In this document: positions 33,472 to 37,405 of the stretch, in pieces
Layout: the number at the start of each line of letters is the position of its first letter
Numbering within the stretch: the stretch's first letter is position 1
Source of the DNA: Sphingobacterium deserti
Lineage (GTDB): Bacteria > Bacteroidota > Bacteroidia > Sphingobacteriales > Sphingobacteriaceae
Direction of reading: 5' to 3'
DNA length: 64,000 nucleotides
Assembly: GCF_000757725.1 (NCBI RefSeq)
Contig: NZ_JJMU01000014.1
Location: 124,001 to 188,000, forward strand
Position numbers and translations under genes: made by a program
Notes under the pieces: generated by a model
What the model was told of the DNA's origin: nothing
Database searches by the model: none
The model's input: the letters and a program-made list of their open reading frames with translations, nothing else

Positions 33472-34677
33472 ATGAGAACAATCAATACATTATCTCTTTT
33501 TGCTGGTCTGGGATTAGCATTAAGCAGTTGTAGCAAATCAGACGGGCCAACACAGGTAGAGACCCCAGGATCTTACGTCATTGCCGCGGCTACGTTAAGT
33601 AGTACGAATAGCACAGATTACTTGTTGACTGCGCCATCTTTACAGGAAGGATCCATCACTACCACAGGGACTGGCGTTGAGCAATTGGGCTATCGCACCT
33701 ACGTCCAAGCGGCAGACCGTATCTTCAGCTTCCGCTACGGACAGGGAAATCCCGGATCAATCACCTCTTATACTCTAGCTGAAGGTAATTTGTCTGCTGG
33801 GCAAAGTTTACAAGGAGAAAGTACAGATGTCAACGCACTTGTAGGCGATGATGTGTTAATGATTCGTAACAATCCGCGTTTCAATATCCCCAATATTATT
33901 TTTACGTTGATTGATGGAAAGAACGTAGCAGTAAAAGGTACTGCCAGTATAAGTAATAAAGATTTAGCGGGCAACGGAGAAGTGGCGTCCTTAAGCACTA
34001 CGCCAATTTTACTTGCAAATAATAAAGTTTTGGCTCCATTCTATACGGTAGTAGATGGTACCGGTCGCTCAGAGTTTTTGACGAACTACCTAGATGAAAG
34101 TCGTTTTGCGGTCTTTTCGTACCCTTCAATGACCTTAGAAAAAACGTTCCTTGATAAAAGGACAGGAATTCTAACTTCGGGCGTACACCAAACTAGAAAC
34201 GGCGATGTATATGCATTTGCTGGTGCCGGTCATCCGAACTATTGGTCGACGACGACTACGTACCCACTTTCAAAGAACCCATCTGGTATACTAAAGATCA
34301 ATGCGAATACATTGGAAACTGATGCCACTTATTTCTTTGATCTGACTGCTGCATCAGGAGGACACCGTGTCAGAGCATCAAAATATATTGCAGATAACCT
34401 ATTTTTCTTAGCCATGTATGGCGATGCGAATGCTGCACGTGGTGCTAAAACACGCTACGCTATAGTTGACGTTGCAAGCAAACAATTCAAATGGGTAACA
34501 GGTTTGCCATCAACTATCAACGAGTCTGGCTTCCCTGTCTATGTTGAAAACGGCACCGTATCTGTCGGTGTAAATGGAGAAAGTGAAAACATCGTTTACC
34601 AGGTTAATGCACAAACTGCGGTAGCAACGAAAGGCTTAAAAGTAGATGGTTTGATTAAATCTATCATGAAACTTTAG
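33472..34677 (+). CDS. DUF4374 lipoprotein, XusB-like
   Basis: A 401-residue lipoprotein: MRTINTLSLFAGLGLALSS then CSKSD gives a signal peptidase II site with cysteine at residue 20. The remainder (YVIAAATLSSTNSTDYLLTA ... NLFFLAMYGDANAARGAKTRYAIVDV) is a predicted beta-propeller of the DUF4374 family. In Bacteroides thetaiotaomicron the DUF4374 protein XusB binds siderophores at the cell surface and delivers them to XusA. The third partner, PepSY-domain XusC, is not here: transcription ends at the hairpin at 34802-34841. Confidence 0.88.
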   Translation: MRTINTLSLFAGLGLALSSCSKSDGPTQVETPGSYVIAAATLSSTNSTDYLLTAPSLQEGSITTTGTGVEQLGYRTYVQAADRIFSFRYGQGNPGSITSYTLAEGNLSAGQSLQGESTDVNALVGDDVLMIRNNPRFNIPNIIFTLIDGKNVAVKGTASISNKDLAGNGEVASLSTTPILLANNKVLAPFYTVVDGTGRSEFLTNYLDESRFAVFSYPSMTLEKTFLDKRTGILTSGVHQTRNGDVYAFAGAGHPNYWSTTTTYPLSKNPSGILKINANTLETDATYFFDLTAASGGHRVRASKYIADNLFFLAMYGDANAARGAKTRYAIVDVASKQFKWVTGLPSTINESGFPVYVENGTVSVGVNGESENIVYQVNAQTAVATKGLKVDGLIKSIMKL

Positions 34678-34801
34678 GATTAAAGATCTTCGAGTAACCT
34701 ATAGTCTTCAAAAAACCCGCAGGGCAACATAAACGCTATTCTTTTCAAGAATAACCTGTGTAAACTGCCGTATCGCGTGTAGACTAAAGGCTCGATTTTA
34801 T

Positions 34802-34841
34802 AAAAAAGCATGAGCGCCGACGAGCGTTCATGCTTTTTTTA
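34802..34841. terminator. bidirectional terminator between xus-like operon and the Cas12f-like gene
   Basis: GCATGAGCGC (34808-34817) pairs with GCGTTCATGC (34824-34833), one wobble. Seven T residues follow on the plus strand and six on the minus strand, so it serves both convergent genes. Confidence 0.9.
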
Positions 34842-34874
34842 ATCTATCGGGAAAGACGACCTCTTACGTAAGCC

Positions 34875-35969
34875 CTATTCCACGATAACCTCAATCCCTG
34901 CCATCTCTGCTTTATACTTTATCTTTTGTATAAGCCCATAGTAACTCCAGTTTCGCAGCACAAATCGCTCTTCTGCCGCGCGTTCTTCCCTAGCCGTTTG
35001 GTTTGTCAAGAGCAAGGTGCCGGCCCCCGCTTTAATACAGATATCAATCAACTTCCGGCTGTAATTATGGAGTCGATTTTCTACGTAGCGCTTTTCCTTA
35101 TCGTCAAAATTCGTCAGTCCTTTCGTCTTTCGCTTGCGGCCATGCCCGCCTCTTGCAAACGAAGCTGCCTTTTGCAGTCGGTTTCTCGCCGCCTGAATGG
35201 CGAGTCGTTGATATAAAAACTCTTCTTTGGTTCCGATACGATAATTATCCCTATCGATCAGTACGGTAATAGGATACTCCAGGGAAAGCGAAGCTTCTGC
35301 AATAACGTATGGCTCAAGAGCATGTTGTATCTTAGGCATTTCTAAGCTGAGCAATAAGAAAATTTTACCCTTCAGAATTTGAAGTGAACTTCCGCAAATT
35401 TTGATTTGTCCTGATGTGGCTTTTTCCAGAAGTTTTCGTTTGCTCCCACGGTCCTTACCCAAATACGTTCGGAAGGGAATTTTAAAAAGCGTAAATTTAA
35501 ATTCCTTTGAATCAGCGTCTCTTCTGAATTTCATATCAAACCCTGAAAACGGTATGGGGACATCTCGTTTCGAGGTAGACAACGACCGCTCACCTTTCCA
35601 ATACGCCACACGATGCTGATTGAAACACTTGACGGCGCTGACGTTCAAACTGGTCAATATTTTCGCTGGAACCTGCCCTTTAAAATAGTGAGACAACAAT
35701 TGATAGGTCGTATTTAAGCGGGAGGTGGTGAATATTCCCTGCTCATCTTTTTTGCGGCTGGACAGCTTCAAGCGGATATCATCTTGCAAATAAATGAAAT
35801 CGCAAATTCGCTCTTGCACATACTGATGAGTAAAGACTAAGTTAGACCCTCTAAACACTAGTGACTGCCATTCGAACAGCGTGCTGTAATACGCCCTGCG
35901 TTGTTCCGTATTATCGCAATCTATGTACAATTGAATTTTTCGCACCAAGATATGAGTCTGCTTTTCCAT
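34875..35969 (-). CDS. nuclease-dead Cas12f/TnpB-like protein
   Basis: The 364-residue protein belongs to the Cas12f/TnpB superfamily. Seen: an N-terminal wedge/REC-type region (KIQLYI near 11; YWKGERSLSTSKRDVPIPF at 123-141, the Cas12f G-E-xSLPSYK-x-D-xPI motif); FARGGHGRKRKTKGL at 271-285, the arginine-rich bridge-like segment; and LRNWSYYGLIQKIKYKAEMA at 338-357, a hallmark of the RuvC region. The RuvC-I aspartate is replaced (IAEASLSLEYPI near 223-234 aligns with G-V-D-L-G-I-N-x-P, leaving Ala225 at the Asp position). The RuvC-II glutamate is Thr322 (GTLLLTNQT at 317-325). The protein stops right after the GIEV strand, so zinc ribbon and RuvC-III are absent. It should bind a guide RNA and DNA but not cut, like TldR and dCas12f regulators. 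There is no tnpA beside it. The alignments are by eye. Confidence 0.85.
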   Translation of the reverse strand: MEKQTHILVRKIQLYIDCDNTEQRRAYYSTLFEWQSLVFRGSNLVFTHQYVQERICDFIYLQDDIRLKLSSRKKDEQGIFTTSRLNTTYQLLSHYFKGQVPAKILTSLNVSAVKCFNQHRVAYWKGERSLSTSKRDVPIPFSGFDMKFRRDADSKEFKFTLFKIPFRTYLGKDRGSKRKLLEKATSGQIKICGSSLQILKGKIFLLLSLEMPKIQHALEPYVIAEASLSLEYPITVLIDRDNYRIGTKEEFLYQRLAIQAARNRLQKAASFARGGHGRKRKTKGLTNFDDKEKRYVENRLHNYSRKLIDICIKAGAGTLLLTNQTAREERAAEERFVLRNWSYYGLIQKIKYKAEMAGIEVIVE

Positions 35970-36142
35970 ATCAATCCATTATGTTATTTACATGCAAACG
36001 TCGTCCATACACAACCTCGTTCATGCAAAGCGCTGGTCAATAGCATTGAATGAACTATCAAATGTCGCCAAGGGACTATGATATTCCGGCTCTGTACTGC
36101 AAAGTCAAATTACCGCAGCAAATCCTCTATCCCGCCTTCTTC

Positions 36143-36167
36143 CAATAGGGGCCTATTGATTTTTTTT
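36143..36167 (+). terminator. plus-strand terminator in a gene-free region
   Basis: CAATAGG and CCTATTG form a hairpin followed by a run of eight T residues within AT, on the plus strand only. No gene on that strand ends here, so it may close a small RNA antisense to the leader of the Cas12f-like gene. Confidence 0.55.
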
Positions 36168-36176
36168 CATTTTTTG

Positions 36177-36287
36177 CTATAAACACATGTCGTAAATAGT
36201 ATTTCCAGCAATGTCGTCCCACCCCTTAAAGAGAGCAATTAAACGAATTTTTGACAGCGATATATCCGTAAGACTTTGCTTTGACAT
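36177..36287 (-). CDS. possible 36-codon upstream ORF
   Basis: Frame MSKQSLTDISLSKIRLIALF continuing GWDDIAGN and ending at TAG, inside the leader of the Cas12f-like gene. A GAGG lies 7 bases before the ATG. The composition looks protein-like and amphipathic, but a chance frame is just as likely. Confidence 0.2.
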   Translation of the reverse strand: MSKQSLTDISLSKIRLIALFKGWDDIAGNTIYDMCL

Positions 36288-36601
36288 ATTGACCTCGTAC
36301 AATCGCATGGAATCATTATGTTTAGAATTAGTTGTGTATACTTCCCAAAAATGTATAAGCCGTAACGGCTGTTGTTAGTATTCAGTGAGTGACCAGCGTC
36401 CTCACCCTACGGCGCCACAAGGAGCCTCTAAGTTTCGTTTTAAAACAATAGTACGCGTTGCCACACTATCAAAATACGCGATATACCTGTATTCGCATGA
36501 TGCTTTTAAATGCGGTAAATAATTCAAAGAACCTTATACATCTATATCAATAAAACCGTTTAAACATCTCTGTGAAAGTTATTTGGCCAATCCTTATAAA
36601 G

Positions 36602-36632
36602 CAAATATAGTAAACTTATATATTTTGCGCAA
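36602..36632 (-). promoter_or_regulatory. minus-strand promoter toward the Cas12f-like gene
   Basis: The minus strand has TTG at 36632-36630 and TATATTTG at 36609-36602 with exactly 20 bases between. The TTG is inside the 20-bp palindrome at 36619-36638, so a protein bound there would block RNA polymerase. Confidence 0.65.
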
Positions 36633-36638
36633 AATATA
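36619..36638. promoter_or_regulatory. 20-bp palindromic operator 1 (TTGCGCAA core)
   Basis: A perfect palindrome, TATATTTTGCGCAAAATATA, over the -33 box of the minus-strand promoter. The neighbouring XRE protein is the likely ligand. Confidence 0.6.
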
Positions 36639-36649
36639 AAATAAATATA

Positions 36650-36657
36650 TTGCGCAA
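36650..36657. promoter_or_regulatory. operator 2 (TTGCGCAA) in the XRE promoter
   Basis: Second TTGCGCAA, centred 25 bp from the first. Its TTG (36650-36652) stands 21 bases before TAAATGTA (36674-36681), a 6 of 8 match to the -7 box of the XRE gene. Confidence 0.5.
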
Positions 36658-36715
36658 AGTTATTATACAAAAATAAATGTATTAAAATTAGACCTGTTTT
36701 TATTTTATTTGGCTT

Positions 36716-37186
36716 GTGAGTGGAATAAATAAAGGTATTTTAAAAGAAATTGGTCTAAAAATTAGAGCGCGTCGAGAGGAATTATCCTACTCTCAAAAAG
36801 ACGTTTCTAATATGACTGGGCTAACGGTAAACATGATTTCAACATTTGAAAACGGGAAGGGTTCCACGCTAAACAATTTCTTATTAATCTGCCGTGCATT
36901 GCAAATACAACCAAAGGATGTGCTTGTTGATGATATTGACTTACGACCTCTTTACGATTTGCCTCCCGAGTCTAGGAGAAGACTGGAAATTACGCAAAAG
37001 CTAGATGATCTCGTGTACAACAGCGATTTCTTCAAGCAGCCTAAGCGTGTAGCAGAGGTCATCAAAGAGCTCGATTCAGATAAACGAGATAGTAACAAGT
37101 TTTCCGTGTATTTGACGAGCTACTGCAAGGAAGGCGAGCTGGAATACGTTAAAGAAGGGAACATAAAGAAATATAGAAGACCCTAA
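36716..37186 (+). CDS. XRE-family helix-turn-helix regulator
   Basis: A 156-residue protein with GTG start. Residues about 8-68 are a Cro/CI-type helix-turn-helix (GLKIRARREELSYSQKDVSN, then TGLTVNMISTFENGKGSTLN). The C-terminal 85 residues (LPPESRRRLEITQKLDDLVY ... YCKEGELEYVKEGNIKKYRR) are a small domain I have seen only in Bacteroidota XRE proteins, of unknown role. It is divergent from the Cas12f-like gene and separated by a promoter region in which both -33 boxes sit in TTGCGCAA palindromes. Autoregulation and control of the Cas12f-like transcript are likely. Confidence 0.9.
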   Translation: MSGINKGILKEIGLKIRARREELSYSQKDVSNMTGLTVNMISTFENGKGSTLNNFLLICRALQIQPKDVLVDDIDLRPLYDLPPESRRRLEITQKLDDLVYNSDFFKQPKRVAEVIKELDSDKRDSNKFSVYLTSYCKEGELEYVKEGNIKKYRRP

Positions 37187-37267: not shown

Positions 37268-37366
37268 CGTCATTGCGAGGAAGTATGACGACCTCCCAAG
37301 GAAACCAATCTGCATTGTTGTTTTGCTAAGATTGCTTCGTCGTCGTTCCTCCTTCTCGCAATGACG
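37268..37366. repeat. 99-bp palindromic repeat element, copy 1
   Basis: Perfect 12-bp terminal inverted repeats CGTCATTGCGAG and CTCGCAATGACG, with interior AAGTATGACGAC and CGTCGTCGTTCCTCC that also partly pair. A related copy is at 45532-45626. No coding sequence; it looks like a MITE or REP-type element. It lies between the convergent XRE and GH20 genes. Confidence 0.75.
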
Positions 37367-37405
37367 AAAATCATCACTTTTTAGACCCCTTCATTGGGTT
37401 TTCTA

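What the first reader, a model, noticed from the sequence alone, without database searches (positions are those of the whole stretch)
34875..35969. Nuclease-dead Cas12f/TnpB-like protein in a chromosomal locus without transposase
The protein shares family words that are hard to explain otherwise: GERSLSTSKRDVPIPF, RGGHGRKRKTKGL and LRNWSYYGLIQKIKYKAEMA. By-eye alignment puts alanine at the RuvC-I aspartate and threonine (residue 322) at the RuvC-II glutamate. Known relatives with dead RuvC sites (TldR repressors; dCas12f proteins reported to work with ECF sigma factors in Bacteroidota) are RNA-guided transcription regulators. This copy has no ECF sigma gene beside it but has an XRE regulator, which would be a different arrangement.
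Basis: partly seen in the sequence, partly recalled or inferred. Interest (0 to 1): 0.92.

Follow-up and report, generated by a model that had tools for sequence, protein, structure and literature searches.

The report
RNA-guided regulator with distant sigma partner
A Sphingobacterium genome carries a CRISPR-like protein that has lost its DNA-cutting site and sits beside its own guide-RNA gene; it probably switches genes on together with a sigma factor whose gene, normally next door, lies elsewhere in the genome.

Summary
The 364-aa gene at 34875-35969(-) is a nuclease-dead Cas12f, closest among solved structures to the dCas12f of 9n9c/9n9m (51% identity, model Z 29.8). By alignment RuvC-I Asp is Ser227 and RuvC-II Glu is Thr322; the chain stops before RuvC-III.

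The interpretation needs correcting. An XRE gene is the usual neighbour (38 of 50 genus loci examined). The oddity is the missing sigma gene, which adjoins dCas12f in 45 of those 50. But this genome does encode the cognate sigma, full length, on another contig; its only PDB match is 9n9q_C, an RpoE solved with dCas12f. Its flanking genes are those that surround intact sigma-dCas12f operons in other species. A sister species has the same split, and dCas12f is well conserved between the two (dN/dS about 0.045).

I also found the guide RNA (scaffold 36363-36432, guide 36311-36330, minus strand). Its target is unresolved: a leader of a thioredoxin-SusC-SusD operon and one other promoter region are the leading candidates.

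Verdict: a split-gene variant of the dCas12f-sigma RNA-guided transcription system. Three other lineages keep dCas12f and guide RNA with no such sigma found.

The parts
34875..35969 (-). nuclease-dead Cas12f (dCas12f), 364 aa
   Evidence: dN/dS about 0.045 against its G040 orthologue
36363..36432 (-). guide-RNA scaffold core (two short helices)
   Evidence: covariance model R1, built from 62 copies without the window or G040: 65.1 bits, E 6.1e-21; E 1.4e-19 genome-wide
36331..36341 (-). 3' end of scaffold, GTATACACAAC
   Evidence: the motif GTATAYACAA recurs at the end of many of the 110 scaffold copies found by regex
36311..36330 (-). putative guide TAATTCTAAACATAATGATT
   Evidence: follows the scaffold; window and G040 stay alignable for about 27 nt here and not beyond; exact place
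36519..36533 (-). GGTTCTTTGAATTAT, promoter-like stretch about 90 nt upstream of the scaffold core (inferred)
   Evidence: kept in G040; TTCTTTGACNTATTG-like strings precede many copies
36624..36658 (.). inverted repeat with TTGCGCAA arms upstream of the XRE gene, possible operator (inferred)
36716..37186 (+). XRE-family regulator, divergent to the guide RNA and dCas12f
   Evidence: HTH_3 E 1.4e-8; 94% identical in G040; same cluster in other loci

Best explanation
This is a dCas12f-sigma RNA-guided transcription system whose genes have been split. The XRE-guide RNA-dCas12f module lies here; its sigma (RpoE-type, 268 aa) is encoded at G000:C12 about 96.4-97.3 kb, at least about 51 kb away. dCas12f with its guide RNA binds a guide-matched site without cutting it, recruits this sigma in trans, and the sigma brings RNA polymerase to start transcription of the downstream gene. 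Shown: the dead Cas12f fold, the guide-RNA scaffold, a full-length cognate sigma elsewhere, the same split in a sister species, purifying selection. Inferred: the interaction of the two proteins, activation, and the target.
For: Sigma profile hits G000:C12:96455-97249 at E 6.1e-101 (338 bits) and G040:C2:308439-309233 at 2.2e-98; the next ECF genes of G000 score 42 bits or less. The sigma's only PDB match at E<=0.001 is 9n9q_C RpoE, E 7.8e-30; 9n9q also holds the dCas12f chain of 9n9c. It keeps 43 of 45 columns that are invariant among linked sigmas and groups with the G040 copy at 100/100, as dCas12f does at 100/99. Its neighbours (ABC ATPase 90-94%, next gene 80-87%) are those flanking intact sigma-dCas12f operons in L053, L054, L057, L059, L060, L061 and L068. 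The dCas12f neighbours are shared with G040, so the split predates the two species; dN 0.118, dS 2.64 since then. Guide RNA.
Against: No binding or transcription data. Pfam finds only the sigma's region 4, at about the cut-off. dS is near saturation, so dN/dS is rough, and the sigma's dS could not be computed. Unlinked genes may have ceased to interact. The guide has no perfect target in the genome at 3 mismatches or fewer in 20 nt except itself. Three other lineages keep dCas12f and guide RNA without any such sigma, so dCas12f can persist without it.
Confidence: 0.6

Rival explanations
1. Sigma-independent repressor: dCas12f and its guide RNA bind a promoter or leader and block polymerase, as TldR does; the C12 sigma now serves other promoters or is a bystander.
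For: No sigma beside dCas12f; dCas12f and guide RNA persist in G067, G039 and G063, where only generic ECF genes were found; TldR shows that a dead nuclease can repress (passages of PMC13418256).
Against: Both G000 and G040 keep a full-length sigma of exactly this family with 43 of 45 invariant columns, while two dCas12f-free genomes tested, G012 and G035, have none.
Confidence: 0.22
2. Decaying relic of a duplicated locus, with no function left.
For: Guide has no perfect target; broken or partial dCas12f genes occur in the genus (G004:C32, G055, G051 and others); L073 and L075 have long branches and 9 and 16 departures at linked-conserved columns.
Against: Intact ORF; dN/dS about 0.045 after the split; scaffold and guide conserved while flanking DNA is not; window branch short, 0.084.
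Confidence: 0.13
3. Active RNA-guided nuclease, CRISPR Cas12f or transposon TnpB.
For: Fold and homology.
Against: RuvC-I and RuvC-II acidic residues replaced and C-terminus missing; no CRISPR array in the stretches searched beside the gene, 34650-34900 and 35950-36760.
Confidence: 0.02

Closest known systems
dCas12f-RpoE RNA-guided transcription system (PDB 9n9c, 9n9m, 9n9q)
   Same: Full-length homology and fold of dCas12f; sigma of the same family in the genome; guide RNA encoded upstream of dCas12f.
   Different: Sigma gene not adjacent but at least about 51 kb away; only one guide RNA here, against up to six in linked loci. The biology of the known system is recalled (a preprint that is not held).
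TldR (TnpB-like nuclease-dead repressors)
   Same: Dead RuvC, guide RNA beside the gene, non-transposon context (TldR from passages of PMC13418256).
   Different: Sequence is of Cas12f rather than TnpB type (PADLOC Cas12f 183 bits, NCBIfam TnpB 62 bits below cut-off), with a cognate sigma in the genome.
CRISPR-Cas12f (type V-F)
   Same: Fold, RNA scaffold followed by a guide.
   Different: Catalytic residues lost, shorter, no array seen beside it.

Membership tests
dCas12f-sigma system | full-length Cas12f homologue with inactivated RuvC | tested here: met
dCas12f-sigma system | cognate RpoE-type sigma encoded in the genome | tested here: met
   G000:C12:96455-97249, E 6.1e-101; only PDB match 9n9q_C
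dCas12f-sigma system | sigma gene adjacent to dCas12f (usual, 45 of 50 loci; I do not treat it as functionally defining) | tested here: not met
dCas12f-sigma system | family-specific guide RNA upstream | tested here: met
dCas12f-sigma system | guide matching a promoter-proximal target | tested here: inconclusive
   only imperfect sites
dCas12f-sigma system | guide-dependent transcription start | not testable with these tools
   needs RNA-seq or ChIP-seq
TldR | descends from transposon TnpB | tested here: not met
   best full-length matches are Cas12f and dCas12f; no formal tree with TnpB was made
TldR | RNA-guided repression | not testable with these tools
   -
CRISPR-Cas12f nuclease | intact Asp-Glu-Asp site | tested here: not met
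   Ser227, Thr322, chain ends at 364

The most novel reading that the evidence does not exclude
Nuclease-dead Cas12f and its guide RNA have become free-standing: here they work with a sigma supplied in trans, and in three other Sphingobacterium lineages (G067, G039, G063) they work with no sigma of this family at all, as natural RNA-guided regulators of another mode.
Probability: 0.3. Interest if true: 0.78.

Novelty: new variant of a known kind. Interest (0 to 1): 0.56.

Why it matters
If a dCas12f can recruit its sigma from a separate locus, the two need not be made together, and the pair could act as a network: one sigma, several guides, perhaps several loci. Sister species with linked, split and sigma-free versions give a natural series for asking what dCas12f does without its sigma. 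It also warns that surveys which look only for linked dCas12f-sigma pairs would miss such systems.

Tried and rejected
Sigma remnant beside dCas12f: tblastn gave E 0.011 at window 36122-36364, but a profile search of the gap scored 0.1 bits there against up to 3.5 bits in 200 shuffles, and the hit overlaps the guide RNA. Rejected.

Departures at conserved dCas12f columns as a sign of lost sigma binding: window 6, G040 7 of 108, but equally diverged linked proteins show 6-14. Not informative.

Local targets: 11 partial matches of 15-nt guides within the fetched 20-kb loci against 4 for reversed guides; the count includes copies of a guide in neighbouring guide-RNA units. No clear local target.

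Target of the window guide: a first pattern had a wrong last base, taken from an alignment with columns trimmed; corrected. The SusCD-leader site (C49:31224) matches 16 of the first 18 but only 16 of 20, so it does not appear in the corrected search at 3 mismatches, where C37 (18 of 20) and C67 (17 of 20) do; both lie in long open frames. Three other orthologous site pairs exist. The site before a kinase-like gene (C6:19645, 15 of the first 18, preceded by G, intergenic) is a serious competitor.

Guide AAAGGACTTTTATACTTATC of L052/L067: no perfect target in its two genomes beyond itself.

Literature: the paper on dCas12f and sigma that I recall is not held. Searches listed no paper on dCas12f with sigma or on Cas12f in Sphingobacterium; what is in print on split systems therefore remains unknown to me.

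Full report
What it is. The ORF at 34875-35969(-) encodes 364 aa. It matches PADLOC Cas12f at E 2.4e-54 and, over its full length, the PDB chain 'Nuclease-deactivated Cas12f' 9n9c_A at E 2e-115. An AlphaFold model from 44 homologues (pLDDT 83.3) superposes best on 9n9m_A, titled dCas12f-gRNA-DNA complex (Z 29.8, 363 residues, 51% identity), then on active Cas12f proteins. By the HMMER alignment the RuvC-I Asp is Ser227 and the RuvC-II Glu is Thr322; the protein ends where active Cas12f chains continue. One homologue of 44 (L074) keeps Asp at column 227.

Where it sits. Of 93 genus genomes searched, 55 have a match. The genus is Sphingobacterium, inferred from named loci that coincide in contig length and place with G043, G017 and G034. 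I fetched neighbourhoods for 50 of the 59 near-full-length matches, plus three partial ones. By ORF clustering, 45 of the 50 have a sigma gene directly upstream of dCas12f; in three of those (L055, L057, L064) my ORF caller saw a shortened sigma, and one (L048) has a broken dCas12f. Pfam finds sigma-70 regions 2 and 4 in this cluster, partly below cut-off. A divergent gene of two XRE-like clusters lies upstream in 38 of 50 (one cluster is confirmed by Pfam through the window member, the other was read by eye). So XRE is part of the common layout, and the window departs from it only by lacking the sigma. The five without an adjacent sigma are the window, G040, G067, G039 and G063; on the dCas12f tree they need four changes, window and G040 being sisters at 100/99.

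The sigma is elsewhere. A profile of 21 linked sigmas against nine genomes found a full-length relative in the window's genome on another contig, G000:C12:96455-97249 (E 6.1e-101), and in G040 at C2:308439-309233 (2.2e-98), about 203 kb from its dCas12f. G067, G039 and G063 gave only generic ECF scores (best E 8e-12 to 5e-16), like the dCas12f-free G012 and G035. From the contig ends, sigma and dCas12f in G000 are at least about 51 kb apart. The only PDB match of the G000 sigma is 9n9q_C, RpoE (E 7.8e-30); the same entry holds the dCas12f chain. The C12 sigma keeps 43 of 45 invariant columns. Pfam sees only region 4 in it, near the cut-off. Identities of the C12 sigma and of the window dCas12f to their counterparts in 44 loci rise and fall together (Spearman 0.74); this is what shared descent gives, and it does not show interaction.

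History. The genes around the C12 sigma (permeases upstream, an ABC ATPase 90-94% identical and the following gene downstream) are those around intact sigma-dCas12f operons in L053, L054, L057, L059, L060, L061 and L068, and around the sigma-free dCas12f of L073. So the sigma seems to stand at an old site of the operon while the XRE-guide RNA-dCas12f module stands at another. Either the module moved, or two full loci lost complementary halves; several genomes do hold two loci. The window's neighbours are shared with G040 (55-94% identity), so the split predates their divergence. Since then dCas12f shows dN 0.118 and dS 2.64, ratio about 0.045, within the 0.017-0.060 seen for the linked pairs whose dS could be computed in the printed part of that output. 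dS is near saturation, so the ratio is rough.

The guide RNA. A repeated non-coding element lies upstream of sigma in most loci, found by regex in 46 of 50 with one to six copies each. A covariance model built from 62 copies, without the window and G040, has 12 pairs, five of them with at least one two-sided change, and finds the window copy at 36363-36432(-) with 65.1 bits, E 6.1e-21. Genome-wide it is the only strong match in G000 and in G040; the next in G000 has E 0.28. G067, G039 and G063 also keep the element. The scaffold ends GTATACACAAC, followed by the putative guide at 36311-36330. Between window and G040, scaffold and about 27 nt of guide are alignable; from there to dCas12f nothing is.

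Do such guides have targets? One control worked: guide AGCGTCCGCAGATTTT of the L080/L081 lineage has a second, distant 16 of 16 match in G013 and G016, 15 of 16 in G044, and 14 of 16 in G070 at the corresponding place, all about 50 bp upstream of a TetR-like ORF (TetR_N below cut-off). One did not: the shared guide of L052/L067 has no perfect second site. Guide GTTCTTGACGGTACCAC (exact in L039 and L041, one mismatch in L055 and L058) matches exactly one site each in G000 and G040, inside a conserved element before a thioredoxin-like, TonB-plug, SusD operon, and with one mismatch in G062; in G089 and G018, which carry the guide, that element was not found.

The window guide's target is open. 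A site 123 nt downstream of the start of that GTTCTTG sequence (C49:31224) matches 16 of the first 18 positions, and the orthologous site in G040 is the only non-self match there within 3 of 20. Against it: a mismatch at position 5 in both species, a preceding A rather than the G that I recall as TAM, 16 of 20 overall in G000, and two other G000 sites that score better over 20 nt. Shuffled guides reach 16 of 18 in this 0.9-kb region in 3 of 20,000 trials, but the region was picked after the match. Four orthologous site pairs exist in all, one of them 95 bp before a kinase-like gene (read by eye) with a preceding G and a single mismatch in the first 15 positions in G000.

Mechanism and standing. 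The best reading is an RNA-guided, sigma-dependent activator with its sigma supplied in trans. The known system's mechanism is recalled, not read (not held); from calls come only the PDB entries and the TldR passages of PMC13418256. The rival of a sigma-free repressor stays open, most of all for G067, G039 and G063. A search of plasmids gave only distant TnpB-like matches (6 records, below 30% identity).

Noticed in passing
L137:8972-9150 (G000:C49:30971-31149); 50 places in 41 of 93 genus genomes: A conserved, probably structured non-coding element of about 180 nt before a thioredoxin-SusC-SusD operon, with no convincing Rfam match (two matches at E 0.14 and 0.61 elsewhere in the loci). In 15 of 30 aligned copies a minus-strand ORF of 100 aa or more starts 108-138 bp before it; the C49 one is a shorter HTH_3 protein.
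   Followed up: partly
L072 (G067), L073 (G039), L075 (G063): Three further dCas12f loci with guide RNA but no adjacent sigma and no sigma of the family found in the genome.
   Followed up: partly
L039, L041, L055, L058 guide RNAs: Four guides with the sequence GTTCTTGACGGTACCAC or one mismatch from it, which equals the conserved core of the element above.
   Followed up: partly
L074 (G022): The one homologue of 44 that still has Asp at the RuvC-I column.
   Followed up: no
window 36624-36658: Inverted repeat with TTGCGCAA arms before the XRE gene, kept in G040: a possible operator.
   Followed up: no
window 37270-37370: Repeat-like stretch with CGTCATTGCGAGGAAGTATGACGA, read by eye as a REP-like element; similar strings follow some guide-RNA scaffolds (L043, L044, L047).
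   Followed up: no
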